64,000 bases of DNA from Diacronema lutheri (taxonomy: Eukaryota > Haptophyta > Pavlovophyceae > Pavlovales > Pavlovaceae). The DNA lies in the NCBI GenBank assembly GCA_019448385.1, contig JAGTXO010000024.1:102001-166000 (forward strand), given 5' to 3'. Shown piece after piece: positions 99 to 44,841 of this stretch. A model generated the notes under the pieces. The model did no database searches. It was not told the origin of the DNA and was given only the letters and a program-made list of their open reading frames with translations. Position 1 is the first letter of the stretch. The number at the start of each line of letters is the position of its first letter. Position numbers and translations under genes: made by a program.

Positions 99-914
99 CT
101 ACTTGGGCTTGTACTTGTGCGGGAACATGAGCGGACCGAGGCGCTCCTTGCACTCGGTCATGATGCCGACGGCAAGGATCATTCGGCCGGTGCGCCACGC
201 CCAGCCGCGGAAGAAGCTGCTGAGTCCGCCCTGCGAGTAAAGGGTGCCGGCAGTGTGAGAGAAGCCCTTGTAGGTCTTCTGCTCCACGTCGCCCTGCATG
301 CAGGTCTTCATCGTGTCGAGCGGGTGCGACAGAGTCGCGCAGAGGACGCCGGCGCCGATCGCGCCGACCATCTTGGCCTGCACGCCGTCAAATCCGGCCT
401 GTTCGCGCAGCATGCCGGCGAAGGCGGGGCCGACGCCGACGTAGCCGGCGGTGAAGAGGCCCTCGCGGCCGCACGAAGGGATCAGCCCGCGGAAGATTGA
501 CAGGACGCCGTTTTCGCGCATGAGGCGCGCGGGTGTCGCGAGGAGCGAGCCGCCAAACCGCTGCTGCTGGATGAGCACGAGCTCCATCGGCGCGCAGAGG
601 AAGCCCGAGAGCGCGCCGCCGCAGAAGCCCGACGCGACCTGCTCCTCGTCCGTCAGTTTGCGGTGCGCGCTCTGCCCGCCGGTGATCAGCCCCGCCGAGA
701 AGCTCGAGAGCGGGAACTGGAGCGCGGTGAGGCTCGCCATGTTGATCACCGAGACCGTCAGGCCGCGGTAGAGCACCATCGGGTTGAGCGTGAGCGGGAG
801 GCCCTGCTGCGAGGCATTCTTGCAGTAGAGCATGGGCTGCAAGATTGTCACCTCGATCGTGCCCGCCGTCGCGCCGACGGCGAAGTTCTCCGCGCCGCTG
901 AGCTCGGTCGACAT
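99..914 (-). CDS. Mitochondrial carrier family protein
   Basis: A 271-residue single-exon protein of mitochondrial carrier (SLC25) size. Three loosely repeated halves-of-helix modules are visible; the third has the clearest carrier signature, HPLDTMKTCMQG (P-x-D-x-x-K), the second has APMELVLIQQQ, and the first a degenerate QPMLYCKN. Glycine-rich amphipathic stretches between them fit six transmembrane helices in the inner mitochondrial membrane. I start at ATG 914 (MSTELSGAENF) because the upstream in-frame extension to 1004 is basic and unlike a carrier. The substrate cannot be read from the sequence; the second-repeat contact residues are unusual, so it may belong to a divergent plant/algal carrier clade. 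It lies 218 bp downstream of the next gene on the same strand. Confidence 0.85.
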   Translation of the reverse strand: MSTELSGAENFAVGATAGTIEVTILQPMLYCKNASQQGLPLTLNPMVLYRGLTVSVINMASLTALQFPLSSFSAGLITGGQSAHRKLTDEEQVASGFCGGALSGFLCAPMELVLIQQQRFGGSLLATPARLMRENGVLSIFRGLIPSCGREGLFTAGYVGVGPAFAGMLREQAGFDGVQAKMVGAIGAGVLCATLSHPLDTMKTCMQGDVEQKTYKGFSHTAGTLYSQGGLSSFFRGWAWRTGRMILAVGIMTECKERLGPLMFPHKYKPK

Positions 915-1132
915 CCTCCCCCACCCGTGCGAGGTGTGCCCGAAAGCGACGAACCGATGACCCGAAGCAGTTTTTTTTTTGAGGGGTACCCATAATAATA
1001 TCATGGAGGGCGACTCTGAAAAAAACGGGGCGGGGGCTTCTCAGAGTGGCGCCAGCGGGTCGGACTCAGGGTCCGCGCCGGGGCAAGGTCGGGCCGACGG
1101 GCGCTCGGCGCGCGCGGGCTGGGGCCGGCCGC

Positions 1133-4100
1133 TCACATGCGCCGGCTCGCCGCGAGCGCGGCGGGGTCGTGGACGAGCAGCGCGTGGCGGAACGGCGGGA
1201 GCAGCGCGCCGGCCGCAGGCGCGGCGAGGCTGGCGAGCGTCCTTGCGCCGTCGGCGGCCGCACGCTCGGCCGCGCCGATCGCGTCGGCACGTCGCTTCTC
1301 GTCGGCCATCGAGTTGGCGGGTTCGCGCGCGAACGACACACCCGCCGCGTTCAGCAGCACACACAGGGCAACCGCCGCGTGCCCAAGCGCGGCGCGCTCT
1401 CCGTCGGAGCCCTTGGCGCCGCGCGCGCGCGCCGCCCACACGCGCTGCAGCGCGCGCAGCGTGTCGGGCGTGCGCGCGAGCTGCGCGAGCGCGGCGGCGC
1501 CGGGCGCCCAGTGCAGGCCGCCGGACGGCGCGCTCGCGCGCGCAGCATCGTCCGCAGCGTCGCGCAGCAGCTGCGCGTGCATCGACAGCATGCGCATGTG
1601 CTCCGCCTCGCACAGCAGCAGCTGCGCGGGCAGCCGCGCGGCGACGCCCAGCTCGGCGGCGGACGGCGGCGCGAGGGCGAGCGTGAGCACCGCGCCGCGC
1701 ATCGGCGCGCGCGCGCCACGCGGCTGCGCGTCGGCCGCGGCGGCGGGCGCGGCGGCGCGCGCACGACGGCCCGTCGCGTCGTCTCGCGCCGCGCGCTGAA
1801 CGTCCGCTCGCACCGCGAGCGGTCCGGATCCGTCAAAGGCCGAGCCGCGGTGGAGCGGCACCGCACGCTCTCGCACCGCACCGCTCGGCTGGCCCGGCCG
1901 CGCAGGCCGCCACTCCGCGAGCAGCTCGAGCGGCAGCGCGCCCCAGCACAACGCGAGCGTGCGCGGCCGCGCGTGCCGCCGCCGCGCGTACACGGAGCCG
2001 CCGCCCGCGCCCGCGCCCGCGCCGCCGCGCCGCGCGCCGCCCGCGCCACCGCCGCCGCCGCCGCCGTCGGCGGGCGCGGGCACGACCGTCGCGTCGAGCT
2101 GCACGATGAGGAGCGCACCGCCATCGATGAGCGACGCTGGCGCGCGCGCGAGGAGCTGGGGGCCCTTGTTGTCAAAGGCCCACGGCTCGGCCGCCGCCGC
2201 GGCCGCCGCGGCGCCGGCGGTGTCGCGCGCGGGCCGCGCGCCCAGCTCCGCAACGTTGCCGCGCATGCTCGCACTGCGCACGTCCAGCACGCACAGGCGG
2301 AGGGTGCGCGCGGTCTCGACGTAGCCGGCGGGCACGCGCGGCACGCCCTCCGCCCTGACGGGCCGCAGCAGCAGCTGCGCGGCATCGCCGCCGCCGCCGC
2401 CGCTGCCGTCCGACAACGCGGCGGCGAGCGCGCCGCCGAGCGACTCGACCCCACCGCCCGCCGCCCGCCGCGCAAGCTGCGAGTCGGTCGGCGCGCGCGC
2501 GAGCGCGCCGGCGAGCGCCGCCGCGCGCGCCGCGCGCGCGCCGCGCAGCTCCGCCGCCGCCTTTGCGAACGCTGCGCGCGCGCGCGGCGGCAGGTCGTGG
2601 TACGGCGTCGCGGCGCGCACACGCCGCGCGCTCTCGCGCGCGGCCGCCGACGGCGGCGGCAGCGGCGCGTCACGGCGCGCGGCGGGCGAACGGGCGAGCG
2701 CCGCGTCCGCGCGCGCCGCGCGCGCGCGCGCCGCGTCCGCCGCGATCGCGCCGGCGGCGCCGCCGTGCCGCTCGAGCGCCGCGTCAAGCTCGCGCAGCGC
2801 GTCGAGCGCGCGCACGTCGACGAGCAGCGCGCCGAGCGGCGCGCCGGGCGAGGCGGCGGCACCGGTCGCGTCGAGCAGCTCAACGCGCGCGCCGCGCACG
2901 TCCGCGCCGCGCGTGAGCAGCTCGTCGAGCGAGAGCGTGCCGCTCGCGAGCACGCGGCCGGCGGGCGCGCGCGCGCGCGCGGACGTGCCGCGCTGCGCGA
3001 CAAGCTCCGTGTCCGACGCGCTGAGCGCGAGCAGCTCGAAGACGACGTCACCGTCGTCGGCGTCCTCCGAGTCGAGTGCCTCGAGCAGCTCGCGCCGCGC
3101 GGCGAGCCCCGCGTCCGAGCCGACGCCGAGCGCGACGGCGTGCGTGAGCCCGAGCGGCGCGCGCATGCCGCTCGGGCCCACGTCCGCGCTGCGCACCGCG
3201 CGCGAGTGGGCGAGCGGCGCGCCGGGGAAGTCGACGCGCACGCAGAGCGAGTCGGCCGACGCGACCGCGCGCCGCGCTGCGCTGCCCAGCTCGAGCGTCG
3301 AGACGGCCACCTCAGCGGATGGGTCGGCGCTTGCGCGCGCGGCCGAGCGCGCGGGCGGCGAGCGCGCGGGCGGCGAGCGCTCGCCGCCGCGCGCGCGCTC
3401 GCTCGCGCGCGCGTCGCGCTCGCGCTCGGCGCGCAGCCTCTTGCCCGCCTCGCGCTCGACGACCTTGGCCTGCGCGCGCGCGCGCGCGGCGGGGCGCGGC
3501 GTCGGCCGCCGCGCGGCGGTGCACCCACGCGGCGCGCGCGGCACGCGGCACGCGGCGCGCGCGGCACGCGGCACGCGGCGCGCGCGGCATGCGGCGCGCG
3601 CGCACCGCCTTGGCCGTGCCGTGCGTGTCGATGGCGCTGTCGACGGAGCGCATCGCTTCGAGCGCGCGGATCGTGAGACGCACCGACCCGATCTTGTCGC
3701 GCTCGCGCCCTTTGAGCACGGAGAGGATCTTATACGCAGGGGCGACGCGGAGGGGGACGGGAGGCGACGCGGACGGAGCCGCGGGTCGGCGGGCGGGCGG
3801 GCGCGCGCGGCCGAGCGCGGAACCGTGCGAGCGCGGCGCGCACGGGGAGCGCCTCATTGTCAATGTCGCGCCCGCGTGCGAGCAGCTCCTCGAGGTTTGC
3901 AAAAGCGGCGCCGATCTCGACGCGCGAGGGCAGGCCCGTGCGCAGGTCCGGCGCGTCCTTGTCGATCGCCCAGAGCGTGAAGTAGACGTCCGAGTCCTCG
4001 CGGCTCTCCGACTCGAGCGCGTCGAGCAGCAGCTCGCGCGCCCTCGAGCCGAGCGGCACCTCAAACGCTGCGCGGCGAGCAGGGGGCGGGCGGGCGGGCG

Positions 4101-7100
4101 AACGGGCGGATGAGGCGAGGCGGGCGGGCGAAGAGCGCGTGCGCGCGGCACTCGCCCTTGTCAAACGCGACGAGGTGCGAGCCATCCGCCTCGACGGCCA
4201 TTGGCCCCGAGCGGATGTCATCCGTCGCGAGGAAGTCGAATTCAAACTCGAGCTCGTCGACGCCGCGCGGCAGCTCGCCCACGTGGTCGAGCAGCAGCTC
4301 GTGGATCGTGACGACGATGCACTCGTCGGCGCCGAGCGTCGATGCCGCCGGCGGCGCGCGCGCGCGCCCGGCTGCCGGCGCACCGCGCGCGCCGGCTGAT
4401 GCGCCGGCGCGCTGGCGGCGCTGCGCGAGCTGGCGCTCGGCGGCCTTGGCGCCGTCCGCGCCGCCGTGCGCCTCGAGCGCCGCGTCCGCCGTGCGCAGCG
4501 CGGCGCGCGCGTCGAGGCGGAGCGTGAGCTCGCCGACCGTGCGCGTGCCCGCGCGCGTCGTGCGCGCGAGCGGCAGCACGCGCTCGGCGGCGGCGCGCGA
4601 CGCGGGCTCGGCGAGCGCCTGCTCGAGGTTGATGAACGTGCTACCCACCTCCACACCCACCGCGCCCGGCCGCGCGCCGCGGTCGAGCTCGTAGAGCGTG
4701 AAGTAGACATCCGAGTCCTCGCGCGAGCGCGAGTCAAGCGCGTCGAGCAGCGCCTCGCGCAGCGCGCTGCCGGCCGACGCATCAAAGCGCTTGGCGTAGC
4801 GCACGGCGTGGTCGCCGTCGCGCTGCACCGCGCATGGCGGCGCGCGCTCACCCTCCGTCACGCCGAGCAGGTCGAGCCGCAGCTCAAGAAGCGCGGCGCC
4901 CGCGCCCAGGTCGCGCTCCACGTCAAAGAGCACGACGCGCGAGACGGACACGGCGATCACGTCGCCATCCTCGCCGTCGGCAACGGCGGCGCCGAGCTCG
5001 CTCGTCGACCGCGCGCGCTCGGCGGCCGCGTCGCCGCCACCGCCGCCGCCGCGCGCGCGCGCGCGCGCACGGCCCGCGCGGCGGCCGGCCGGCGGTGGCG
5101 GCGACGCGCCGCGCGCCAAGGGCGCGGCGCCCGCCGCGCTGATCGCCTCGCGCGCCGAGCCGGCGCGCTCGATCGCCCGGTCGATCGCGATGAGCGCAGG
5201 CAACGCGCTCGTCGTGAGCACGACGCTGCCCACACGCCCGCCGCCGCCGCGCGGCGCGAGCAGCGGCACGGCCTCGGCGGCAAAGTCGCGCCCGCGCGCG
5301 AGCACGTCGGCGAGGGCGAGCGTGCCGACGCCGAGCTCGCGCGCCGCGTTCGCCGGCTGCCCGCGCGGCGCGCCGCGCAGCTCAAGGCGAAGCTCCGACG
5401 CCTCGTCGCGCCCGTCCTCGCCGAGCGCCTCGGTGAGCGCGCGCCACACCGGCGCGCCCGCGTGCACGTCTACCACCTCACGCCAGTCGAGCACGTGCCG
5501 CCCCGAGTCCTGCACGCCCACGCGCGCGCTCGCGAGCGGCACGGCCGCGCCCGGCACGACGACGACGAGCTGCAGCTCGTCGATCGAATCTTCGAGTGCG
5601 CCGACGTCGTCGACGGTGAGCAGGCCGACGTGCAGCGTGAGCTTGTCCACGCCCGCGCCGCGGGCACCCTCGCCGCCGTCGGCGCGCGCCGCCGCGCGGC
5701 TCGGGCGGCGGCGCGCGCCGTCGACGCGCGCGGACGGCGCAACGTCGCGCGCGTCCGCCCGCTCCTCCGCCTGCCGCGCCGCGCGCGCGTCGCCGTGCCG
5801 CTCGAGCGCGTCGTCGATGTCGCGCAGCGCGGCGACGGCCTCGACGGTGGCGGTGAGCGTGCCCGCGCGCTTGCCGTCTCTGTCCACCAGCTCGAGCTGC
5901 GCGCCGAGCACGTCCTTGCCGCTCGATAGCAGGCCCTGCAAATTGAGACGCGAGCGCGCGAGCTCGATCCCTTTGCCGCCACTCGCGCGCTCGTGGCCGT
6001 ACACGACAAAGCTCGTGTCCGCGTCGGCGGTGCGCGACGACTCGATCGCCTCCATGAGCGCAAAGCGCAGAGCCGTGCCCGCCGACACGTCGAGTTGCGC
6101 CGCTGTCTCGTACAGGTGGCGCCCGTCATCGTGTAACGGCACGCGCGCGCTGCGCACAACCTCGCGCCCCACAAACTCGTACTCCACGGTCACGTCGTCC
6201 ACCTGCGGCGGCACAGTGCGCACGTCCGACAACTCGAGCTTTGCGATTCCGACCGTCACGCGCACGTCCTGCCGAACCGCGTCACGCACGTCGCGCGCGC
6301 GTGGCTCGGCCGCGCGTGCCGGCGACGGCGCGAGCGCGGCCTCGGCGCGCTTCGCGCCGGCGGCGCCGCCGTGCCGCTCGAGCGCCGCGTCGATCTCGCG
6401 CAGCGCGGCGAGCGCGCGCACGCTCACGACGAGCGTGCCCACCCGCCGCTTGCGCCCGTCCGCCGAGAGCACCGTGAGACGCTCGCCGAGCGCGTCGGCA
6501 CGCGCGGCGTCGAGCAGCTCCTCGAGGTTGAGCTCGCACGTGCCCAGTGGCTGTGGCGCGGCGCCCGGCTTTGCCTGCAGGTCGACGGTGCAGACGGTGA
6601 AGATCACCGCAGAGTCCTCGCGGCTCGCCGACTCGAGCGCGTCCATGAGCTCGGCGCGCGCCTTGCTGCCCGCACGCACGTCGACCGCGTGCTCGAAGGC
6701 GAAGGCGTGCGAGCGACCGCGCTCGTCGATGCGCACACGCTTGGTCCACAGCTCGTCGGGCAGGTTGGGCATATCCACGCTCACCACCAGCTCGTCCGCC
6801 TCGCGCGGCAGCTCATCCGCGCTCGCCAGCTCGAACCGCTCCACCTCCACCGCGATCGTGTCCTCGGCGCCACGCGACGCGCGCGCGCCGCGCGCGCCGC
6901 GCCTGTCGGCGCGCGCGCCGCCGTCGGCCGCCGCGCTGTCCGCGGCGCGCTGGCGCGCAACGCGCGCAGTGGTGTCGCCGTCAAGAACGTCGCGCGGCAG
7001 CTCGCCGCCCGGCGGATCGCGCGGCGCCGGCTCAAAGCGCTCGCGCTCAAAGCGCTCGGCCTCCTTGGCAGAGCCGTGCGCGTCAAGCGCGGCATCCGCG

Positions 7101-9740
7101 TCGCGCAGCGCGCCGAGCGCGCGCACGGTCATCGTGACGGTGCCCACCTCGGCGGCGGCGCCGCCGGCGTCGAGGCGCGCGCGCGGGCTTTCCCGCGCCG
7201 CGCCGCCACTGCCGCGCGCGCCGCCGCCGGCACGCGCCTGCGGCGGCGCGAGCACGAGCGGCAACTTCGCGTCGAGCAGGTCAGCACCGTTACGGAGCAG
7301 CTCTTCGAGGTTCACGTACGCGTTCGCCAGCTCAATGCGCGCGGGCTCGGCGCGGGTCGCGTCGCGGTCGAGGCCGTAGAGCGTGAAGTAGACGTCTGAG
7401 TCCTCGCGGCTCTCCGACTCGAGCGCGTCGAGCAGCTCGCGCCGCGCGCGCGTGCCGACGCCGCACGAGAAGATCTGGCGGAAGCCGACGCCGCGCATCT
7501 CGCCGTCGGGCCGCACGCGCACGGGCTGCGACGAGACGCCGAGCACGCCGAGCAGGTCGAACTCGAGGACGAGCTCGTCGATGGCCGCGGGCACCGACCG
7601 CGCCATCTCGCGGATCGAGATGGCGCTGATGGCCACCTCGATGCCGACGAACCGCGCGGTCGGCTTGCGCGCCGCGCCCGGAGCGGCGGCGCGCTGCGCG
7701 AGCTTCGCCTTGGCGGCGGAGCCGTGCGCGTCGAGCGCTGCATCGGCGGAGCGCAGCACGGCGAGCGCGCGCACGCTCACCGTCACCGTCGCGACCGGCG
7801 CGCCGGACCGGTCGGCGAGCGTGAGCGGCCGGTCGACGTAGTCAGCGCCGTCGGCGAGGAGCGCCTCAAGGTTGACGTGCCCAACGCCCATCTCCTCGCC
7901 CGCCTTGCCCGCCGGCGCGGGCGCGCGCCGGTCGGCGGCGGCGCGGGTCGCGTCGCGGTCGAGGCCGTACAGCGTGAAGTAGACGTCCGAGTCCTCGCGG
8001 CTCTCCGACGCGAGCGCGTCGATCAGCAACTCGCGCGCGCGCGTGCCCGGGCCTGCGGGCAGCGCGTGCTCGAGCTCGACGTCGCGCAGCAGCCCGCGCG
8101 CGTCGGCGGCCGAGCGCCGCAGCACGTCAGAGCGCGCGTGCGCGAGGTCGAGCGGGTCGAGCTCGAGCACGAAGCCATCCACGTGCGCTGGCAGCCGCGG
8201 CTCGTCGAGCAGCTGCAGCGCGCTCACGCGAAACTCGAGGCGCTCTGCGCCAGCAGGCTCTGGCAGCCGTTCAGTTGAGGATCCCACCGGCCGTTGCGCG
8301 GACGAGCGCGGGCGGCGAGCGGCGGTCTGCGGCTCGGCCGTGCGCACGGACGCGCCGGCGGCGGCCAAGCTCACGCGCGTCTCGGCGCCCGCCGCTGCCG
8401 CCACCACCGCCGGCGCCGGCGCGCGCGCGCGCGCGCCGCTTGCGGCCGGCGGCTCGCGCGCAGCCGCCCGCTCGCCACTGGCCGCGCGCGCCTCGGCGGT
8501 CTTGGCGGTGCGGGCGTCGCCGTGGCGCTCGAGCGCCGCGTCCACGTCGCGCAGCGCCGCGAGCGCCTCGACGCTCACGACGAGCGTGCCGGCCGAGGTG
8601 CCCGCCTGCGCCTTGCGCGCGTCCGCGGGCGCGAGCGCCAGCCGAACGCCGAGCGCGTCACGGCCTGCGTCGAAGAGCTCCTCGAGGTTGAGCGCGGCGC
8701 GCGCAAAGGGCACGCCGTTGGCGCCGCGCGAATCAGTCGCTGTGAGCACGAACGCCACGTCCGAGTCCGTTCGATCATCTGAGTCGAGCGCGCCGAGCAG
8801 CGCCTCGCGCTCGCGCGAGCCGGGCGGTGCGTCGAAGGTTCGGCTGAGCGCGAGCACCGCGCGCGAGCGCGAGACGGGCGCGGGCTCGGAAGCGACGGAC
8901 GCGGCGCCGAGCAGATCGACGGTGCACACGAGGCGCGGCTTGAACGTCGGCAGCGCGAAGCCGCGGCCGAGCTCGATCTCGCCGACCGACACGCGGATCG
9001 CGTGCGCACCGGGCGGCGTCGCGGTCGACACGGTCGACGGCGCGGCCGGCGCGAGCGCGGCCTCGGCGGCCTTGGCCTTGGTCGCCGAATCGTGCTTTGC
9101 AAGCGCGTCGTCAATGTCGCGCAGCGCGGGCAGCGCGAGCAGCGAGACGACGAGCGTGCCCACGTTGAGTTCGGCCGCCGCGCCGCGCCGGCCGACCGCC
9201 GGCTTGGGCGGCTCGACGACGAGCTTGAGCGGCCGGTCGCGCACGTCCTTCTCGTCGTCGAGCATGGTCTCAAGATTGACCATCCCACGGCCAAGCACGA
9301 CCGGCGCGGTACGCCCGCCGTCCGTCGCGTACAGCGTGAAGCTCACGTCCGAGTCGTCATGCGTCTGCGAGTCGAGCGCGTCCATCACCGCCGCGCGCGC
9401 GCGCCCGCCGGGCGGCAGCGCGAGGGTCGCGGCGAGGCGAAGGTCGGCCTTGCCATTGACGGGTGCTATCGCCTCCGACTTGGCCGACTCAACGCCGAGC
9501 AGGTCGAACTCGACGTAGACCTTGCCCTTGCCACGCGGCAGCGCGAAGCCCTTCGCGAGCTCGAGCTGCGTCGCGCTCACGCGCACCTCGTGCTGCGGCG
9601 CGGCCGCCGCCTGCCGGCGCGCGGCGTCGCGCAGCGGAGCACAGCAGGCAGGACCGGGGGAGCGGCGGGGGCGCGCGTGCGCGCCGTCAGCCGCGCGCGC
9701 CGCGCCTTTCGCGCCGCATGCTGCCGTTGCTTCGCACCAT
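1133..9740 (-). CDS. Giant protein with ten tandem RPGRIP1-C-terminal-like C2 domains
   Basis: My model has five exons: 9738-9740 (only the ATG), 4156-9592, 3844-4067, 3606-3728 and 1133-3469; 2,707 aa, in frame throughout. Each roughly 170-residue unit repeats one pattern: a beta-rich start ending in a VEFDLLGV-like strand, a REDSDVYFTLY-like strand, a VNLEELL helix, then G-T-L-V-V-S-V-x-A-L-x-A-L-R and a linker like DAALERHGGAAGAKRAE. Unit order and spacing match the C-terminal C2-like domain of RPGRIP1/RPGRIP1L, a ciliary transition-zone scaffold. Ten units start near 9592, 9000, 8245, 7660, 6860, 6280, 5650, 4980, 4330 and 3310. About 500 further residues at the C end (2750 to 1133) are Ala/Arg-rich and unassigned. 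Intron 2 (4068-4155) has a GC donor; splicing it restores the domain pattern in unit 9. The domain assignment is by pattern memory, not a search. Confidence 0.75.
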
Positions 9741-9930
9741 GATGGCCCGCCGGCAGGTTCAAACCCAAACGACGCCTATTTTGAAAACGGGACGCCCATT
9801 TTGAAAATGCGGCCAGCCGTGCCGCGCGTCTACCCGCGCCGGCCGGGAGGGCGGCTGGGCGGCTGCCGGCTGAGACTGAGCCGGACGAGCGCGTCGCGCC
9901 TCTCTGGCCAACCCCTCAAAAGGCGCGCGC

Positions 9931-15484: not shown

Positions 15485-18400
15485 TCAGTGCCTCTGCAAC
15501 GAGAAGCCGCCTCCCGTGAATCGAGGTAAGCTCGCGCGCGCCTCTGCGACGGCCGCGTCGAGAGGCTTGGTGCGCTCGAGCCGCACGCGCTCGCGATGGA
15601 GCTGCTCCTTGCGCTTCTGGTCGTAGAATTTGACCTTCACCTCGTGCAGCTCGCGCACCACCCGGTCGATCTCCGTCTTGTACTCGCCCACTTGCGCATG
15701 GTACCTGCCGCCGAGTCCGCGCGCGCGCGACGCGCGGCGGCAGCGCGGTGACGTCCCGCCACGCGGCGCGCGCCCACGCGACGCCCGGTCGGGCGAGAGG
15801 CGCGGGCCGGCGCGCGTGCACGCGCGGTTGGGCGGCGCGCGTCGCACATGGCGAGCTCCGACGCCATCTGCTCGGTCTGCTGGTCCTTCTCGCGCAGCGC
15901 GTTGCGGTACACGGCGAGCTGCTCGGCGATCTCAGGGCCGGGCTGCCGCGCGAGGATCGCCTTGAGCTCGGCGTAGAGGCGGTCCTTGGCGCTCAGCTCG
16001 GCGCCCTTGCTCACGGCCTCCTCCGCCTTGCCTATCAACCGCTTCTGCAGCACCTGCACCTTCTGCAGCATCTCGTACGCAGCCGGATCCGACCCTGCAC
16101 GTCGTCGCGTGCGCATGCGCGCGAGCGCGCGCGCGCGCGCCGGCCGTCGGGGTCAGATGGCGGACCTGAACCCCAGGTCCGGCACAGATCCGGCACAGAT
16201 CCGGCACAGATCCGGCACAGATCCGGCACGCGCGTTGAGCGCGGCCCCTCGCACGCGCGCGGGCCGCGCGCGCGCGCACCCTCGAGCTTGCGCCAGCGGT
16301 GCACGTTGAGCGGCTTGCCGAGCTCCGACTCGAGTGCCTTCACCTTTGTGCGCTCGTGCATCAGCTTCCTCGCCAGGTCGTAGACCTCGTCGCGGATCGT
16401 GCCCACGTTGACGACGGACGCGCGCAGGTTGTCGACGTGCGAGCGCAGCTGGGCAAGGCGCGTTTTGAGCTGCGCGACGGCCTGCGTCGCCTCGTCGTAC
16501 TGCGCCTCGCCCTTGCGCAGCATCGACTCGTGAATCCGGATCTGCCGCGCGCACAGCGGGGCGGAGGGCGGGTTTTTTTTTGTTTTTTGGGGGGGGGGGG
16601 GCATGAGCAGCCGACGCGCGCGCGCGCGCGCGCGCGTCGGCTGGCGGCGCGCGCGGCGGCACGCGGCCGGACGGCGAACTTACCTTCTCGTAGAGCAAGC
16701 CGAGCTCCTCGTTGCGTCGTATGAGCTGCAGGCCGAGGAGATCGCGCTCGTTGAGCACCACGTCGCTCTCCTTGGCCTGGCGCAGCCCCTCCGAGTCGGC
16801 CTCGGCGATGATCGCGCTGAGCTTGGAGAGCTCGGCGCGGTAGTTGGAGGTGGCCTCGTCGGCCTGAACGGTCTGCTTCTTGACGCGCACCACCTCGTCC
16901 TTGAGCGCGTCGCGTTCCTTGCCCACCTTCATGTGCTCAAAGTGCTCGCGCACGAGGGCATGATCCCTCGAGTGGATCTCCTCCTTGAGCTGCTCGATCT
17001 GCTGGCCCATCACCTTGAGCTTGCGCCGCATCTCGACAATCTCGTCGCGCGCCTCGAGCAGGTTCTTGTTGTACAGGTTGCGGTCCGCGCGCACCGCCTC
17101 GTACAGGTTGTGCTGCTGCTTCAGCTTGTTGTCCACGTCGCCAATCCGGCGCTGCTGCGAGACAACGCTCGCCTCGCGCGCGCGCAGCTCGTCGAGCGCC
17201 TGCGCGTGCTTGGCCGACGCGTCGCGCAGCTCGAGCGCGAGCGAGTCGACCTCCTTCTCGAGCTGCAGCGCCGCCTTGCGCTGCCGGTACGCGTCCGCCT
17301 TGTGCGCGCCGATCTGCTGCTCGAGCGTCTTGCGCACGCCCTCGTGCAACCGGACGGCGTCGGCCTGCTGGTGCGTCAGCGCGCGCGACTTGACGAGCTG
17401 CTTGTTCAGGAGCTCGCGCTCGCGGCCGGCGGCGTCTTTCGCCTTCCGCTCCACGTCGCGCGCTCGCCGCGCCTCGACCAGCCTCGCGTCGAGCTCGTTG
17501 AGCGTGCGCTTGAGCGCGACGCGCTCCTCGTCTACCTGCGCCTGCGCCCGGCCGATGCCCGACGCGCGCTTCGTCAGCCCGTCGATCTGCGCGTTGAGCC
17601 GGCCGATCTCCTTGCGGTGGGCGCTCACCTCGTCCTCGCGCAGCCGCAGCTCCACCGCGCGCTCGGCGCCCTCCTTGATGAGCTGAGTCGCCGTGTAGCC
17701 GAGCTCGTCGTCGTGCGTGGCCTGCTTTGCATTCTTGCCGTCGAGCACGTCCGCCTCCTTGGCCGCGCGGTCGGTGCGCACGCGCTCGTCGCGGAGGAGG
17801 TGCTCAGTGCGCGTGAGCGCCTCGTTGGTGTTCTGGATCGACGCGAGCGTCGAGCGCAGGTTCGCCTGGCGCTCGTCGAGCGCGTCGCGCACGGCGCGCA
17901 GCTCGGCCTCGAGCTGCTCCTTCCGCTCGGCCTCGCGCTCGGCGTCGGCCTTGCGCGAGGCGATCTGCTCGCGAAAGGCCGCAATCTGCGCCTGCTGCGA
18001 TGCCGCGTCGTTCTCTAGGTTGGCCACCTTGGCCAGGTAGCCGCCCACCTCCGCGCGGAGCGCGTGGACTTGCGCCATCGCGTGGTCGCGCTCGCGCATG
18101 AGCTCGTTCTTCACCTTCATCAGCTCATTCACCGTGTTCTCCTGGCCAATGGAGAGGCCAGCGCCCTGCTCGACAAGGCGCGACAGGTTCGCGATCTCCG
18201 TCTTCAGCTGCCCGATCGTGTCCTTGGCGCGACCCTCCTTGTCGTGCGCGGCGTCGACCATCTTCCACGCCTTCTCAATCTCGCGCTTGAGCGACGCGAT
18301 CGTGTTCTGGTCCTCCTGCGAGAGCTTGAGCGCGGTCTGCACCTTCTGCGCGTTCTGCACGATCTCGGCGTTCAGCTCTCGCGCCTTCTTCACCAGCCGC

Positions 18401-18819
18401 TTCTCAGACTCGTGCGACTTTTTGAGTGCGCGGTGCAGCTGCGCGCCGGCGCGGTCCGGGCGGCGCGCGCGGGCGCGGTGGCGGCGGGCGGTGGGCCGAG
18501 GCGCGCGCGCGCGCGCGTGCGCGGAGCGGCGGCAGGGCGATCGCGCTGCGCGGCGCCCGCGCGCACCTTCTCATACTCGGTGCGGAAGCGCTCGAGGCTC
18601 TTGTCGCCCACGAGCTCCTGCAGCACCTGCTGGAAATCGCGCTCCAGCGATTCGAACGCCGAGCCCTCGAGGATGGCGGGTTCGCCCTCCTTGGCCTGCG
18701 CGGCAAGCGGCGCGGAGACGCTCGGTCAGCATTCGCGCTCGGTCAGCATTCGGCGCGCGTGCCACCTGTGGCCTTTGGAGAACGGCGGAGCGGCTTACCG
18801 CCTCCTTCAGCTCCGCCAT
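15485..18819 (-). CDS. CFAP58: Cilia and flagella associated protein 58
   Basis: Six exons: 18799-18819, 18567-18695, 16684-18438, 16280-16541, 15848-16094 and 15485-15704; 877 aa, close to the animal protein. Almost the whole chain is coiled coil. Diagnostic stretches include KKSHESEKRL, ALKLSQEDQNTIASLKREIE, KAWKMVDAAHDKE, LVEQGAGLS, NVHRWRKLEGSDP, ILARQPGPEIAEQL and the C-terminal PRFTGGGF. CFAP58 belongs to the axoneme/mastigoneme machinery needed for flagellar assembly and motility. All five introns are GT-AG; the first is only 21 nt of coding sequence from the ATG. Intron 3 holds a C13 stretch and an A-rich run before its acceptor, and intron 4 an 11-bp tandem repeat. The start lies 71 bp from divergent UBE2C. 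Confidence 0.95.
16179..16229. repeat. 11-bp tandem repeat in CFAP58 intron 4
   Basis: Between four and five copies of CCGGCACAGAT run head to tail in the intron between the NVHRWRKLEG and SDPAAYEML exons. Confidence 0.9.
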
Positions 18820-28235: not shown

Positions 28236-31200
28236 CTACCAGATGTAGGCCAGCGGCGGGAGCGCGAGCGGTGGCTCGCCCTCTCGCCGCACGGCTGTCA
28301 CGCCGAGCCGCACCTCGCGCGCGCCGTCGCGCGCCTCGTGCACGTGCGGCGCGGGCCGCGCCTCGGCGAGCGCGTCGACGAGCGGCCGCTCGGGCGCGAT
28401 CGCGCACGGGTGGAGCGCCGAGTAGAGCACCGTGTCGGCGCACGTGAGCGCGAGCACGCGCGCGCCGTCGAGCAGACGCTCGAGCCGCTCGACTGCGCCG
28501 CCGATCGTCTCGCCGCTGCCGCTGCCGCGCGCCGCGCGCAGCTCGAGGCAGTCCCACTCGGAGAGCGCGTCGAGGCCGGCGATGGCGAGCGCGCGCGGCG
28601 CGGGCGGCAGCGGCTCGGTCGACGCGACGAGCGGCAGCGCCAGGTTGACGTACGTCGATCGCAGCCGCGCGCGCTCCTCCGCCGTGCTCACGCCGCGCCC
28701 GGCGGCGCGCTCGGCCGCCGCGCGCGCGAGCTTGAGGAGCTCAAAGCAGACGAGTGCGGCGACGACGGAGGTGGTCGTCGCGATGGCGGGCACGATCCGT
28801 CCGGCGAGCCCCTTGCATGCCAGCCGATCCACGCGCGGGATCGCGTAGTTGTCCGCTCGCAGCCCACTTGCCGCGTGCACGAAGTCGACGTGCCCATTGC
28901 CATCGTCGTCCTTTTCAAATTCGAGCGGACGGAGCGCGCGCGGGGGCAGCGCGGCGCGCAGCTCGTCGGCGCGCGCAAGCAGCGCCTCGGCGCGCGCGAC
29001 CAGCTCGCCCTCCTCCGCGCCCTCCTCCTCCTCCTCCGCGTCTGCGCCTGCGGCCGCGTCCGCGCCGGCGCGCTCGCCGCCGCCGCCCGCCGCGCGCGCC
29101 TCGTCGGCGAGCGCGTCGGCGAGGAGCGGCTCGAAGCGCGCGTCGTCGAGGAGCGCGGGCTCGAGCGGCACGCCGTATGCCTGCGCGTACAGCCGCGCGG
29201 CCGCGCGCGCAAAGGCGACGTGCGCCGGCCGCGCGGCATCAAAGGGCAGCGGCGTCGGCATGCGCTTCGAGCCGCGCCAAAAGGGCAACCCGTCGTCGGC
29301 GGCGGCGTCGGGCGGGTGCGCGCGCAAGATGGCCGCGATCGCGCGCTCGAAGCGTTCGGCGAACAGCCGTACCGCCCGGCGCGCGCACGCGCGCGCCGTC
29401 GCCGGACGCTCGTCGAGCGTGCGCACGACACGGCGGAGCGCGTCGCCGAGAGAGCGCGTGTCGACGCCCTCGTCGGCGCCCGCGTCGGCGTACTGTCGGA
29501 CGAAGGCGACCTCGTCGTCGACGAAGCGCGCGGCCTCGCCCACCGGCGTGCCAAACTCGACGTCGAGCTGCTCGCGCGCCCACGCGACGCAGTGCTCGGG
29601 CGCGAACGGGAAGGCCTTGAGCGTGCACTGCGGGATCGGCGTGTCGGCTTCGTCCGCCGGGTCGGCGCTCGCACCGTACGACTCGGTGACGCGCGGGACG
29701 GAGGGTTGCACCGAGCCCTTGGCGCCGAGCGTGCCCGAGTCGAGCAGCGCCACGCCGTACCGCACGCTCAGCTCGTCAGCGAGCAGCCGTGCGCCCACGT
29801 TATCAAGCGCCGTCGCGACCGCGCCAAGCCGTCGCCAAAACGGCTCGGCAAACGGTCCGGACGGTCCGGCGGTGTCGGCGTCGAGCTTGAGCTGCGACGC
29901 GACGACGCGCATGCGCGGGTTGAGCCGCGCGCACGCCTCCGCTGCGCATGCCGCCTTGGGCCTGCCAATGTCCGCCGCTCGGAAGAGGAGCTGCCGATTT
30001 AAATTCGACCGCTCGATGGAGTCGCCGTCGGTTACGCGCACGCATCCGCCGCTCGTGCCGAGCGCGACGCCCATGCCCGCAAAGTTTTTGAGCAGCTCGC
30101 AGCCGATCGCGCCCGCGCCCACGACGAAGAGCTCGAGCGACGCGAGCGCCGCGCCCTGCTCCGCGCCGACTGCGTCGCGCTGCCCGGCGAGCGCGTCGCC
30201 GCCCTCGCCGCCCTCGTCGCCCTCGTCGAGCGCGCGCGCGACGCGTGCGCGCGCGGGCGGCCAGATCGACTCGGCCGCGTCGTAGTAGAGGAGCTGGCAG
30301 AGCGGGCCCCAGCGGTGCGTGCACGCCTTGAGCGCCTCCTGCGCCGCCAGCCCGCCGAGCAACGCCGCCATTGGCCGGACGCTCGCGCGCGCCTGCCGCC
30401 AAAAGACGCGCGCAAGCGGCGCGTCGAAGGCGCGCGCGCGATCGTCGGTGGCGGCGGCGTCTGTGGCGTCGGCGGCGAGGGCAAAGGCACGCGCCGCCTC
30501 GACGAACGCCGCCTCCTCCTCCGCCGACGCCTCCTCCGCCGACGCCGCCTCACCCTCGCCCTCGCCCTCGCCCTCGCCCGCGCGCGCGCCGCCGAGCTGC
30601 AGCGCGCAGAAGCACGCGTGCACCGTGCGCTGCCGGGCCGGATCAGGCCGTGCGCCCTCGATCGGCACAATCGGCGGCTCCACGCGAGCCGCGGCGACGG
30701 CGAGCGGCTCGAAGCGCAGCGCCGCCCGCCGCTTCACGCGCCGCGCGATGCCGCCGCGCACGTACAAGCCGCCCGGCGCTGCCGCCGCAAGCGCGGCGGC
30801 GCACACGTCGAAGCCGCGACGGCCGCGCACGCGCTGGACCGTGAAAAGCGGCGTGTCGCGCTCGTCCGCACGCCCGTCGGCCGCGCCCTCGCACTCGCCG
30901 CCCTCCGCCCGTGCGTTGATGCCCTCGAGGCCGACGACGCCCGCGAAGGCGACCAAGTCGCCGCGCGAGAGGCCGTGCGGCGCGCCGCCCTCGGCGAGCT
31001 CGACGGTGCCATCGGCGCGGATCTCGTGGATGTGCACCTCGCGCGCAGCCTCGCCGTCTGTGTCCTCGACCACGAAGGGCTCGCCGTCCGCGCGCCCAAA
31101 GTCGCAGAAGACGCGCCCAAAGACGCCGCGCCCACACGCGCCGACAAAGTGCACGCCGCGCGCGCGGCAGAGCTCGTCGAGGCGGACCTCCTCGGCATGG

Positions 31201-31709
31201 TCAAGGTCGGCGGCGACGAGCACCGTCGCCTCCGCCGCGTCCAGCACCGCCGCCGTGAGCGGCCCGTCGTGCACGAGCACGTCAACGTGCTCCGGGTTGA
31301 GCGCGGCGAGCGCCGGCCGGACCGCGTGCGAGCGCGCCTTGCCGACGTGCGCCTCGTCGAGGCAGTAGTTGCCCGCGAGGTCGTCCCAGCCCACCAACGC
31401 ATCATCGTGCAGCGTCACCGCGCGCACGCCGGCGAGCACCAGATTCTTCGCCACTTCGGCGCCCGTCGCGCGCAGGCCCGTCACGAGCACGCGCGATTGC
31501 GACACGCGCAGCTGCGCGTCGCGCCCGATGGTGTAGAGCTGGCGCGAGTAGAGGCCGTCGTCGAGCTCAGCCGCCGGCGGTCGCGCGCGCGCGGGCGCCG
31601 CGCCGCCTCCGCCGCCGCGCGCGCCGCCGTCTGACGCGATGACGGCGACGGCAAGGAGCGCGGCCCAGACCGCGGGCGCCATCGCCCTCGTCGCCGCGTG
31701 GCGTGCCAT
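28236..31709 (-). CDS. UBA1: Ubiquitin-activating enzyme E1 with N-terminal signal-like segment
   Basis: A 1,157-residue intronless E1. The first half has the inactive adenylation repeat (LYSRQLYTIGRDAQLRVSQS, NYCLDEAHVGKARS). The active adenylation domain has VGAGAIGCELLKNFAGMG, the ATP site VTDGDSIERSNLNRQLLFR, and IGRPKA. The catalytic cysteine lies in TPIPQCTLKAFPF near residue 694. The C-terminal ubiquitin-fold domain is present but short. Before the E1 body is a short basic stretch and a hydrophobic segment, MAPAVWAALLAVAVIASDGG, then a Gly/Ala/Arg-rich linker. Cytosolic E1 lacks this. In algae with red secondary plastids such a leader can direct a plastid-associated E1 of the SELMA import machinery. 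Localisation is inference. Start ATG 31709; the in-frame codon at 31715 is TTG. Confidence 0.88.
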   Translation of the reverse strand: MARHAATRAMAPAVWAALLAVAVIASDGGARGGGGGAAPARARPPAAELDDGLYSRQLYTIGRDAQLRVSQSRVLVTGLRATGAEVAKNLVLAGVRAVTLHDDALVGWDDLAGNYCLDEAHVGKARSHAVRPALAALNPEHVDVLVHDGPLTAAVLDAAEATVLVAADLDHAEEVRLDELCRARGVHFVGACGRGVFGRVFCDFGRADGEPFVVEDTDGEAAREVHIHEIRADGTVELAEGGAPHGLSRGDLVAFAGVVGLEGINARAEGGECEGAADGRADERDTPLFTVQRVRGRRGFDVCAAALAAAAPGGLYVRGGIARRVKRRAALRFEPLAVAAARVEPPIVPIEGARPDPARQRTVHACFCALQLGGARAGEGEGEGEGEAASAEEASAEEEAAFVEAARAFALAADATDAAATDDRARAFDAPLARVFWRQARASVRPMAALLGGLAAQEALKACTHRWGPLCQLLYYDAAESIWPPARARVARALDEGDEGGEGGDALAGQRDAVGAEQGAALASLELFVVGAGAIGCELLKNFAGMGVALGTSGGCVRVTDGDSIERSNLNRQLLFRAADIGRPKAACAAEACARLNPRMRVVASQLKLDADTAGPSGPFAEPFWRRLGAVATALDNVGARLLADELSVRYGVALLDSGTLGAKGSVQPSVPRVTESYGASADPADEADTPIPQCTLKAFPFAPEHCVAWAREQLDVEFGTPVGEAARFVDDEVAFVRQYADAGADEGVDTRSLGDALRRVVRTLDERPATARACARRAVRLFAERFERAIAAILRAHPPDAAADDGLPFWRGSKRMPTPLPFDAARPAHVAFARAAARLYAQAYGVPLEPALLDDARFEPLLADALADEARAAGGGGERAGADAAAGADAEEEEEGAEEGELVARAEALLARADELRAALPPRALRPLEFEKDDDGNGHVDFVHAASGLRADNYAIPRVDRLACKGLAGRIVPAIATTTSVVAALVCFELLKLARAAAERAAGRGVSTAEERARLRSTYVNLALPLVASTEPLPPAPRALAIAGLDALSEWDCLELRAARGSGSGETIGGAVERLERLLDGARVLALTCADTVLYSALHPCAIAPERPLVDALAEARPAPHVHEARDGAREVRLGVTAVRREGEPPLALPPLAYIW

Positions 31710-31847
31710 CGCCAAAAGACCCGATCGATCTGCATCGGGAGTAGGGACTTTTCATTTTTACGGGCGACTCGGCCGGCTTCGGGGGCGCCCGCGGTGCGCC
31801 TCACGGCGAGTCACGACTCACGCGAGGTGCTGCAGGGCGAGCGCGTA

Positions 31848-33809
31848 CTACGCCAATCCGATGATATCGCCGCCGTCCGGACGAGCGGCGTCGAGCGTGA
31901 GCGCGCGCAGTTGGCGCACGTCGCTGTCGCGCGCGGCGCGCGTCGCGATGGCGCCGCCGCGCGCGAGCACGAGCGCGCGGTGCTCGGCGAGGAGCTTCGT
32001 CAGCAGCTGCGTGCCCTCCGAGTGCTTGTCGAGGCACATGTCCAGCCCGGCAGCCTCAAACTGCGTGCGGTCGTCGCATCCGACCATGTCGCCCGTTAAG
32101 CCGATGATGAGGCCATCGAAGCCGCGCCGCCGGAGCTCGCGCGTCGCGGCCGTGCCGCCCATCGTGGGCATCTGGTTGTCGATGAGGACCGCGTCGTACG
32201 ATCGGCCGCCGGTGCGCTCGCGCATCGCGCTCTCGCGCGCGAGCGCGTCCGCGCCGTCGACGGCCTGGTCGAAGGCGCCGTGCAGCGCGCCAAAGGCGTG
32301 GAGCGGCAGCGTGAAGCGCAAGAAGGCATCGTCCTCCACGTGCAGCAGCCGGTAGCCGCCGCCATCGTCTTCATCAGCGCCGGCGCCGGCGCCAGCGCTG
32401 GCGGTGGCGGCGCCGCCGCCCTCGGCCGCGCCGCGCGCGCCGCCGCCGCCGCCGTCGGCCGCGCCGCGCGCCCGCGCCCCGTTGCTCGCGCCGTACACCA
32501 TGTGCGCGCTGCGGTCTTGCTCGCCCGTCTTGCTCGCGCCGTACGCCATGTGCGCGCTGCGGTCTTGCTCGCCCGTCTTGCTCGCGCCGTACACCATGTG
32601 CGCGCTTTGGTCGCCCGTCTTGCTCGCGCGCTCGCTCTCGCACCGCCTGCTGCCGCCTCTCGACGGGAAGAGGCCAATCGACGCGCGCCAGCTCCCATCG
32701 CTCGGCGGCTTGAATGCGGAGAGAGCGCGCGCGCGCGGCGAGCCGTGCGAGCATGCGCGGCTGCGCGCACCGCCGGCGTCGTCGCCCGCCGCCGGGCGCG
32801 CGCCACCGCCCGAACCGCGGACGGTGGCGCCGGCCGCGGCGCGGCCGAAGCGCGCGGACGCGCTCGCCGTGGCCGGGATCACACGGCGTATGAGCGGCGG
32901 TGATGCGAAGGGCGTGCGCGGTTCGGTGCGCTGCGCCGCCGCCTCGCGCAGGCGTACACGGAGCTCAAAGGTGCTGCCCTGGCCGAGGCCTGGCGAGCTG
33001 AGGTGGAAGGTGCCCTTGTGCTTGTGCAGAATCTGCTGCGTGATGTGCAGCCCGAGGCCCGTCGCGCCGTTCCCCTGCGCGCGGCCCGCGCCCACCTGCA
33101 AGAAGCCCGCCGCCGCCGCCGTGTTGTCGTCCGCCACGCCCGCGCACTCGGCGCCGTCGTCGGTGCCATCAGCGCCAACGGCGCCGTCGCCCGCCGCCGA
33201 GTCGGCGCTCACGTGCAGCGACGCGAGGTCGGCAGCGCTCAGCCCGACGCCGCGGTCAATCACCACGACGCGGAGCACGTGCTCCGCGACGGGCGGCGAC
33301 GGCGAAGCCTCGACGCGCCCGGCGCCGTCGGCACCGCCGCGCGGCGCGGCGCCGTCGCCGCCCGTCGCCGAGCCGGCGCGCCACGCGTCGGCGTCGGCGC
33401 TGGGCCCGACGCGTGCGCGCCGGCCGAGCGCAGCGCGGCCGAGACGCGCCAGGCGCCGTCCGATCCCCCCCACGCCGTCGGCCGCATGCGAGCGACCGCC
33501 GCCGGCTACGGCGGGCGCGCCGGCGGGCGTCGCGGCCGATGTGGGCCGTGGGTCGGCACCCTCGTCCGCCGTGCCGTCGAAAAGCAGCGCGGTGCGCGCG
33601 CCGCGCTTTGGCGCCGCGCGCACGGCCTCGAGCGAGAGTTCGACGCGCACGGTCTCGCCCGGCGGTGAGAATTTGAGCGCGTTCGACACGCCATTGTGAA
33701 TGCACTGCTGCAGCCGGCGCACGTCGCCAAGCAGCAGGGGCATCTGCGCGAGCAGCGTAGCCGAGTCCGGCTCGACGCCGGCGCGCGCGCCACCGCCGCC
33801 GCCGCTGTC

Positions 33810-33847
<38 letters not shown>

Positions 33848-35447
33848 TGTCCACGACGGGCGCGCGCGCTGGCACGGCGACGCACACGAGGTCTACGCGC
33901 TTCTGCTTGCCGACGTGCGCAAAGGTGGCGACGGCGCCGCGCAGCAGCTCCGCCGGGTGGAAGGGCGCGAGGCTGATCTCCATCCTGCCCGCCTCGATCC
34001 GCTCCCAATCAAGCATGTCCGACAGGAGCGACTCCATGAAGGAGGCGCACATCTTGAGCGTCGCGACCAGCTGCCCCTCGTGCGCGCTCGCGCGCGTCGC
34101 GCCGCCGAGCTCGTGCGCGATCACCGAGATCGAGAGCAGCGGCGAGCGCAGGTCGTGCAGCACCGAGCGGATGAGCAGCGCGCGCGCTGTGCGTGCGGCC
34201 GCCTCGCGCTGCTCGCGCATGTCGGCGCGCGCTGCCTCGTGTGCGTGCAGCGTCGAGCGCACTGAGTTGACGACGAGGGCGGCGACGAGGAGGGACGAGG
34301 CGGCGGCGAAGCAGACGACGAGCACGACCTTGAACGCAAAGTCCACCGAGAGCGTGCGGAAGCCGCCCGCGGGCCGCACGAGGAGCTGCAGCTCAATGGA
34401 GAACTGCGGCAGCGAGATCGCCGACACGACCGCGCCCTCGAGCTGCGTGTCGGCGGGCGCGGAGAGGGAGCGCGCGATGATGCCATCGACATCCGCGAGC
34501 GACTCGTGCGGCTCGGCCGCGCGCAGCTGGTACGTGTAGTTTGCGCGCGCGCTCGCGTCGCGCTCGGCGCCGGCCGGCGGTGCGTCGCCCGACTGCGCCA
34601 AGCGGCCGGTCGCATCGAGCGGCGCAGCTTCGAGGCCGTCGAGCGTGGCGGAGAACATGTCGTGCACGGTCGCGAGCACCGTGACGAACCCCCAAAAGAA
34701 GGTGGGCTGCCCCTCCGAGTTGCGCGGCCCTTCGAAGCGGCAGTTGTCTGCCGCAAGCGCGGCCGTCGAGCAGTCGACGACGTGCGTCGTGCCTGCCGCG
34801 TCGACGAACGGCTGCGTGTCGATGAACTCGGGCGCGTGCGCCGAGAAGACCGGGTGGCGCGCGACGATCCCAACGCCACCCTGCAGCAGCCGTATCGGCC
34901 CCGCGACCGTCGCCGAGCTGGCGGGGTACGCGCGGATCGTCTCGATCGCCTGCGTGCGTTGCGACGGGCCGACGAGCAGGTTGAGCCCGAGCGCGCGCTT
35001 GTCGGCCTCGCGCAGCGGGAAGATATACGTGACCACCCCGTTGGGCGAGAGCTGCAGGTTTGTGATCCCTCGGAACGCGCCGACCATCTGCTTGGCCACG
35101 TCGCGGAACTCGCCGGGCGCGAGCGACGTGTTGGCGGGCAGCACGGCCAGGACGGCGCCGAGCGACCACGTCGCGCTGATCGCGCTCTCGAGCCGCTGGC
35201 GCAGCTTGATCGCGTACGTGTCCGCAAGCGACTGCACCGCGACGTGCCGGCGGTGCTGCTCGCCCACCTCGCCCTCGCCAAACTGCCACGCGATGATGGC
35301 GACGAGCGCGCCCAGCATCGGGAGCGCGAGGAGCACGCGCCGGTCACGGAGCCAGATCGGGCCGCGCAAGCGCCGCCGCCAGCCCTTGGCCGCCGGCTGT
35401 CCCGTGCCGGGCGCCGGCGCGCTCGGCTCAACCGCGCTCCGCCACAT
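31848..35447 (-). CDS. CHASE-domain hybrid sensor histidine kinase
   Basis: An intronless 1,199-residue protein. Transmembrane segments occur near residues 38-56 (VLLALPMLGALVAIIAWQF) and 373-397, flanking an extracytoplasmic region with LSPNGVVTYIFPLREADKRA, typical of CHASE sensor domains. The H-box SVLHDLRSPLLSIS near residue 430 gives the phosphoaccepting His. The ATPase lid follows: GVSNALKFSP (N box), VVIDRGVGLS (G1) and GATGLGLHITQQI (G2). A linker with 16-residue repeats leads to a receiver domain, LLHVEDDAF and the Asp in AVLIDNQMPTMGG near residue 1090, with CLDKHSEG as the Lys region. CHASE kinases sense small ligands such as cytokinins in plants; this ligand is unknown. Output partner not in the window. 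Confidence 0.9.
32483..32628. repeat. 48-bp in-frame tandem repeat in histidine kinase linker
   Basis: About three copies of a 48-bp unit encode a 16-residue repeat beginning ASKTGEQDRSAHMVYG between kinase and receiver domains. The unit keeps frame. Confidence 0.9.
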
Positions 35448-35605
35448 GCCGAGGTGGAGCGGGAGGGTGGGCCGCCCTGCCTCGGCGTGACCCTCTCGCC
35501 GGTGGCTCTGGTGCTATCGTATAGAATTGAAAATCCGAAACGACCTAGGGACTCTCTCTCTACCCGGCACCTGCCGACTGCCGTCCGCCCGTCCCCGTCC
35601 GGGCG

Positions 35606-37322: not shown

Positions 37323-37456
37323 TGCGCGCGCGCGGCCGCGAGCTCCGGGCTCTCCCCCGTGCTGAAGGCGCAACGGACACCACGCGCCTCTTTTAAAAAT
37401 CGGGGTTTGCGCCCTTAGAGCGGAAGCGGCGCCCGGACCCGCCTGCGCGCGCAGCC
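37323..37456. promoter_or_regulatory. 134-bp divergent promoter, MNS1 / PSMA4
   Basis: The region between two outward start codons. It includes a short run TTTTAAAAAT near 37391-37400, the only AT-rich spot, which may serve as a core element. Role inferred. Confidence 0.4.
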
Positions 37457-44600: not shown

Positions 44601-44841
44601 GCGCAGGCGAGCCCTCGCGCGCGCGCGCGCGCGCCGCCGCGCGCGTCAGGAGCGTCGCGAGCCGTGCGCGCGTGCCGCGCGGGCGCGCACGCGACGCCAT
44701 CCGCGCGCGGAGGCGCGCGCATACCAGCCGGCTGGTGGCAGGGCCACGCCTCGAGGCGGGAAGCCCGGCCGCCTCGCGCAGCGCGCGCAGCACCAGCTGC
44801 TCCACGAGGGCGAGCACCGCCTGCCCCTCGGCGCCCGCCAT
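41307..44841 (-). CDS. TUBGCP3: Gamma-tubulin complex component 3
   Basis: Five exons: 44725-44841, 42888-44591, 42190-42732, 41658-42008 and 41307-41504; 970 aa. The N-terminal GRIP half has RKLLLWAHEPRLRLDALCALIE, GDPFVAAYVGAF, DTHGEFFVA and WHSTYVLRAAMLPSYIS then VLLVGKSVRLL. The C-terminal half has LLSQGDLVQHLMDCLAPEL, DGWAAFSLDYHVGDSP, VWRLKRAEHML and the last RLDFNGFH. GCP3 pairs with GCP2 to hold gamma-tubulin and nucleate microtubules. Low-complexity Gly runs in the first half are insertions compared with animals. Intron 2 (42733-42887) has a GC donor, supported by the conserved TK-LVLDD join. Intron 4 contains a C48 run on the sense strand. Confidence 0.93.
41564..41611. repeat. G48 homopolymer (C48 on GCP3 sense strand)
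   Basis: Forty-eight consecutive G on plus, within the last GCP3 intron (41505-41657). It is about 60 bp from the acceptor, so it could extend the pyrimidine tract. Confidence 0.9.

What the first reader, a model, noticed from the sequence alone, without database searches (positions are those of the whole stretch)
1133..9740. Ten tandem RPGRIP1-type C2 domains in one protein
Seen: ten units of about 170 residues share a fixed pattern (FDLLGV-like strand, DSDVYFTLY strand, NLEELL helix, LVVSVRALAALR, DAALERHG linker). Established: RPGRIP1/RPGRIP1L carry one such C-terminal domain, which binds RPGR or NEK4-type partners at the ciliary transition zone. A tandem array is not something I recall in described proteins. 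Inference: a beads-on-a-string scaffold that spaces transition-zone partners.
Basis: partly seen in the sequence, partly recalled or inferred. Interest (0 to 1): 0.8.

Follow-up and report, generated by a model that had tools for sequence, protein, structure and literature searches.

The report
Ten-bead ciliary C2 scaffold protein
A flagellate alga encodes a long protein that strings together ten copies of a protein-binding domain known from the cilium-base proteins RPGRIP1/RPGRIP1L, and ends it with what is probably the tail domain of a second cilium-base protein, nephrocystin-1, which suggests one chain doing the scaffolding job of several.

Summary

Their core models as a second C2-like sandwich plus helices and is probably the C-terminal domain of nephrocystin-1 (NPHP1): profile controls favour this, but single-sequence searches and a two-row profile fail, and no structural test succeeded. 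A metagenomic protein has 12 units and probably the same end. The same genome holds an RPGRIP1L gene (3 units) and a 28-unit open frame with about 16 EF-hands.

Best reading: a multivalent scaffold at the flagellar transition zone, joining RPGRIP1-type docking beads to an NPHP1-type anchor. Domain identity is well shown; NPHP1 homology is probable; location and partners are inferred. New variant of a known kind.

The parts
4156..9775 (-). coding exon with units 1-8 and the first part of unit 9 (its 5' end is unresolved)
9074..9592 (-). RPGR1_C-type C2 unit 1
8504..9004 (-). RPGR1_C-type C2 unit 2
7706..8248 (-). RPGR1_C-type C2 unit 3
7058..7645 (-). RPGR1_C-type C2 unit 4
6353..6862 (-). RPGR1_C-type C2 unit 5
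5777..6265 (-). RPGR1_C-type C2 unit 6
5144..5647 (-). RPGR1_C-type C2 unit 7 (longest window-unit branch in the tree)
4448..4963 (-). RPGR1_C-type C2 unit 8
3467..4324 (-). RPGR1_C-type C2 unit 9, split by three introns
4068..4155 (-). intron, GC-AG, 88 nt
   Evidence: removal restores a complete unit 9
3844..4067 (-). coding exon
3729..3843 (-). intron, GT-AG, 115 nt
3606..3728 (-). coding exon
3470..3605 (-). intron, GT-AG, 136 nt
1133..3469 (-). last coding exon with stop: unit 10, linker and C-terminal module
   Evidence: same layout in P0005
2747..3319 (-). [not shown]
1664..2398 (-). C2-like beta-sandwich of the C-terminal module (model residues 358-602, mixed confidence)
1136..2605 (-). 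C-terminal module, probable NPHP1-type domain; only one copy found in this genome

Best explanation
The gene encodes a multivalent scaffold of the flagellar base. Ten C2 domains of the RPGRIP1 RPGR-interacting type, each a protein-binding bead, are spaced by 20-85-residue basic Ala/Arg/Pro-rich linkers and end in an NPHP1-type C2-plus-helix module. SHOWN: domain type, number, order, and the exon structure that restores unit 9. PROBABLE: homology of the end module to NPHP1 and to the end of the 12-unit protein P0004. INFERRED: the end module anchors the chain in the transition-zone NPHP network, and the beads bind several partner molecules (RPGR-like, NPHP4-like or other C2 proteins) along one chain, so that array length sets how many are held and how far apart. 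Array length then varies between lineages by tandem duplication.
Confidence: 0.55

Rival explanations
1. The array is real and of RID type, but the end module is a lineage-specific C2-plus-helix domain unrelated to NPHP1. The protein is then a RID-array scaffold of unknown anchor.
For: Failure of single-sequence, NPHP1-profile and two-row-profile searches, 4.7% hhalign probability, failed NPHP1 model; C2 folds are common.
Against: Three-row profile and transitivity controls: NPHP1 beats 132 of 132 real-protein windows in both; two of three colinear matches have P under 0.01.
Confidence: 0.2
2. An axonemal or haptonemal structural protein. The C2 beads decorate microtubules or the central pair rather than the transition zone, as other multi-domain proteins of the axoneme do.
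Against: Those fold matches run across domains at rmsd 17-40 Angstrom, so they show only stacked sandwiches; the specific match is RPGRIP1 RID. The NPHP1-like end module, if real, points to the transition zone.
Confidence: 0.18
3. A membrane-binding multi-C2 protein that works like ferlins, with C2 domains docking on lipid, perhaps with Ca2+.
Against: By sequence, only RPGRIP1 RID matches clearly in the PDB. The RID is reported not to bind Ca2+ or phospholipid (PMC4519163). Ca2+-site residues were not mapped here.
Confidence: 0.07

Closest known systems
RPGRIP1 / RPGRIP1L (RPGR-interacting domain, Pfam RPGR1_C PF18111; structure 4QAM)
   Same: Each unit is the same C2 type by Pfam and the array by PDB sequence search; unit 10 also by fold.
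   Different: Human proteins have one such domain at the C-terminus (recalled). Here ten, without the C2-C2_1 domain. The genome's own RPGRIP1L-type locus is separate, with C2-C2_1 and three units.
Nephrocystin-1 (NPHP1)
   Same: C-terminal module probably homologous: three-row profile and transitivity controls, colinear matches.
   Different: No SH3 domain found; array of C2 beads in front; remote similarity only, lost with a two-row profile; found by others only in opisthokonts (PMC4092220, passages; the words haptophyt and Emiliania do not occur in its main text, so haptophytes may not have been sampled).
Metagenomic protein P0004 (JGI, organism unknown)
   Same: 12 RPGR1_C-type units followed by an end that is probably the same module.
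   Different: Two more units; in the tree most of its units do not pair with window units, while W_9 pairs with P4_11 (96/79).
28-unit open frame on contig C9 of the same genome (C9:1402731-1420814)
   Same: Tandem RPGR1_C-type units.
   Different: 28 units, mostly near-identical 352-residue two-unit periods, followed by about 16 EF-hands and a coiled-coil-like tail; the three-row end-module profile did not hit it. Its units (8 of 28 used) group with those of the RPGRIP1L-type locus, 97/93.

Membership tests
RPGR1_C domain family (PF18111) | Match to the curated model above cut-off | tested here: met
   148.7 bits against cut-off 22.9 for the frame with units 1-8; 10 of 10 single units match at E<=1, at least one of them below the cut-off
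RPGR1_C domain family (PF18111) | C2 beta-sandwich closest to RPGRIP1 RID | tested here: met
   [not shown]
RPGR1_C domain family (PF18111) | Binds RPGR or a comparable protein partner | not testable with these tools
   needs binding assays
RPGRIP1/RPGRIP1L proteins | C2-C2_1 domain (PF11618) ahead of the RID | tested here: not met
   no hit at E<=1 in the three frames of the gene; the genome's single PF11618 hit is at C82
NPHP1 proteins | C-terminal NPHP1 domain | tested here: inconclusive
   for: three-row profile 14.9 bits against best real decoy 1.3, transitivity 0 of 132; against: two-row profile 1.9 bits, single-sequence E 12 and 24, hhalign probability 4.7%, model failed
NPHP1 proteins | SH3 domain | tested here: not met
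   no SH3 hit at E<=1 in three frames; an unrecognised first exon remains possible
Ciliary transition-zone proteins | Location at the transition zone | not testable with these tools
   needs tagging or proteomics

The most novel reading that the evidence does not exclude
One polypeptide fuses two partners of the NPHP module, an NPHP1-type anchor and a tandem array of RPGRIP1-type docking domains, so that array length acts as a countable ruler for transition-zone partners. NPHP1-type domains would then predate opisthokonts, and this haptophyte would have multiplied RID domains in at least two separate genes (10 and 28 units).
Probability: 0.4. Interest if true: 0.75.

Novelty: new variant of a known kind. 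Interest (0 to 1): 0.6.

Why it matters
RPGRIP1L and NPHP1 are human ciliopathy proteins of the ciliary gate. A natural fusion would be direct evolutionary evidence that their domains work side by side, would push the NPHP1-type domain outside opisthokonts, and would offer a countable array (10, 12, 28 units) for asking whether repeat number sets spacing or stoichiometry at the flagellar base.

Tried and rejected
Rejected: chance or low-complexity repeat (array E 1.8e-43; one clear PDB family). Rejected: RPGRIP1L itself (no C2-C2_1; a separate locus has it). Rejected: translation as one uninterrupted frame (stop at 4061; introns restore unit 9).

Led nowhere: human NPHP1 against the own genome found only SH3-region stretches (E 0.023 and 0.11), no second end module. 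The window's end module found only itself. The listed NPHP1s were too uniform to give a good profile or model (mean pLDDT 37.8). Foldseek against viral models gave nothing at E<=0.001. Tandem Repeats Finder on L013 found nothing, its longest period being 500. phmmer of whole P0004 against PDB found nothing. The VIA list barely tests the helices after model residue 602.

Limits: the protein search for the array scored only the 7,980 candidates sharing most words and returned one hit, so how widely such arrays occur is unknown; likewise for the end module (7,991 candidates, one hit). Of 1,211 NPHP1 hits the best 120 were listed, those with names being mammals. Of those 120, 100 could be cut at the domain start and 12 remained after a 97% filter. 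In one search the badger row of a display alignment was empty through a slip of mine; nothing rests on it. In the tree, 8 of 28 giant units were used. Ten of the 253 listed frames of the window were scanned for neighbours. The intron choices and the first exon are my reading; no RNA data and no D. lutheri gene annotation were seen.

Not in print, by these searches only: (20 of 46 listed; 15 of 24; 15 of 15; 15 of 19; 11 of 11; 10 of 60; 12 of 58; 1 of 1) listed no paper whose title or abstract start describes a tandem RPGR1_C array or an NPHP1 fusion. Listings were read, not all texts.

Full report
WHERE. The window is G000:C74:102001-166000 of a 43,492,796-base assembly in 103 contigs; contig C9 is 3,042,068 bases. 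The published Diacronema lutheri NIVA-4/92 genome is 43,502,671 bp in 103 contigs, 73.25% GC, longest contig 3.042 Mb (PMC8379373, passages read), about 10 kb more than held here; window GC is 0.68-0.81 per 2 kb. I take the organism to be D. lutheri, a haptophyte; the paper describes Pavlova cells with two flagella and a short haptonema.

GENE. The finding is on the minus strand. A 1904-aa frame (4061-9775) ends inside unit 9; splicing out three introns (88 nt GC-AG, 115 and 136 nt GT-AG) joins it through two short exons to the last exon, 3469-1133, giving 2,767 residues. Unit 9 is complete only in the spliced form. The last exon has a 61% identical counterpart, P0005 (804 aa), as expected of a real coding sequence. 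The first exon is unresolved.

UNITS. Ten units align over their whole length, 35.5% identical on average (45 pairs), with linkers of 20-85 residues rich in Ala, Arg, Pro and Gly. Pfam RPGR1_C matches the main frame at E 1.8e-43, and each unit alone matches it, 10 of 10 at E<=1 with the best at 1.6e-10; at least one does not reach Pfam's cut-off alone. A profile of the ten against all PDB sequences gives RPGRIP1 RID (4qam_B) at E 9.3e-11; the next hit is an engineered protein at 0.042. The aligned signature is the helix-turn 'LxxxLxxGRD' and the last strand 'GxLxVSxxA'.

RELATIVES. P0004 (JGI metagenome, 2797 aa) has 12 units by the window's unit profile and nine RPGR1_C stretches by Pfam (E 1.6e-57). 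Its end is probably the same module: Smith-Waterman 118 and 123 against the window and P0005, reached by 0 of 132 E. coli windows but by 6 and 9 of 1000 block shuffles, and 10.6 bits by the two-row profile against 6.6 for the best decoy; BLASTP finds a 21-residue stretch at E 1.9e-4 and default phmmer nothing. In a 35-row unit tree, W_10 pairs with P0005's unit (100/100) and W_9 with P4_11 (96/79, just under the tool's mark); most other units of the two arrays do not pair, so the end of the array looks old and the rest largely expanded separately, though deep branches are weak.

THE SAME GENOME. RPGR1_C gives eight matches at five loci, the window gene and four others. C82 holds an RPGRIP1L-type gene: C2-C2_1 (E 7.5e-33) and three units. 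C9:1402731-1420814 is a 6028-aa open frame with 28 units, most as 352-residue two-unit periods (successive periods 328-352 of 352 identical in ten of eleven comparisons), then about 16 EF-hands (PF13499 E 9.1e-126; PF00036 16 stretches). Units of C82 and of this frame form a clade (97/93). B9-C2 and Meckelin matches show that core transition-zone genes are present.

MECHANISM. The RID of RPGRIP1 is a C2 domain that binds protein, not Ca2+ or lipid (PMC4519163, whole text). RPGRIP1/1L are reported to hold NPHP4 by C2-C2 contact (PMC5290278, passages; the passage is about their C2 domains in general, and that paper deals with the N-terminal C2 type, not the RID). RPGRIP1L is needed for NPHP4 at the Chlamydomonas transition zone (PMC6215392, passages). 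A chain of ten RID-type beads with an NPHP1-type end is best read as a multivalent scaffold of that zone. Partner identity, stoichiometry and location are inferred.

NOVELTY. The domain types are known; their number and combination were not in the listings of my searches. PMC4092220 reported NPHP1 only in opisthokonts among 52 proteomes and one RPGRIP1L-like sequence in non-metazoa (passages). I rate this a new variant of a known kind.

Noticed in passing
G000 contig C9:1402731-1420814, minus strand (loci L012-L014): A single 6028-aa open frame with 28 RPGR1_C-type units, mostly near-identical 1,056-bp two-unit repeats, then about 16 EF-hands and a coiled-coil-like tail. It could be a giant Ca2+-responsive flagellar or haptonemal protein; copy number may be affected by assembly.
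   Followed up: partly
G000 contig C82:1445117-1447974, minus strand (L001, L009, L016): RPGRIP1L-type gene of the same genome: C2-C2_1 domain followed by three RPGR1_C-type units rather than one.
   Followed up: partly
G000 contig C9:175788-178154, minus strand (L018): 789-aa frame with one RPGR1_C-type unit that groups with window units 1 and 2 in the tree.
   Followed up: partly
G000 contig C37:1086454-1096264, plus strand (L020, L006): Frames with leucine-rich repeats, a weak EF-hand and partial RPGR1_C units; possibly one further multi-unit gene split by introns.
   Followed up: no
window 16153-18570 (-), 36117-38048 (-), 42642-44645 (-): Other cytoskeleton or cilium-type frames in the window: CFAP58 central coiled coil (E 2.2e-65), Trichohyalin-plectin-homology domain (E 7.5e-43), gamma-tubulin complex N-terminal domain (E 2.2e-52).
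   Followed up: no
window 31848-35513 (-): CHASE-domain hybrid histidine kinase with receiver domain.
   Followed up: no
window 28236-31751 (-): Ubiquitin-activating-enzyme-type protein (ThiF and UBA_E1_SCCH domains).
   Followed up: no
window 99-1040 (-): Mitochondrial carrier protein frame just downstream of the array gene on the same strand.
   Followed up: no
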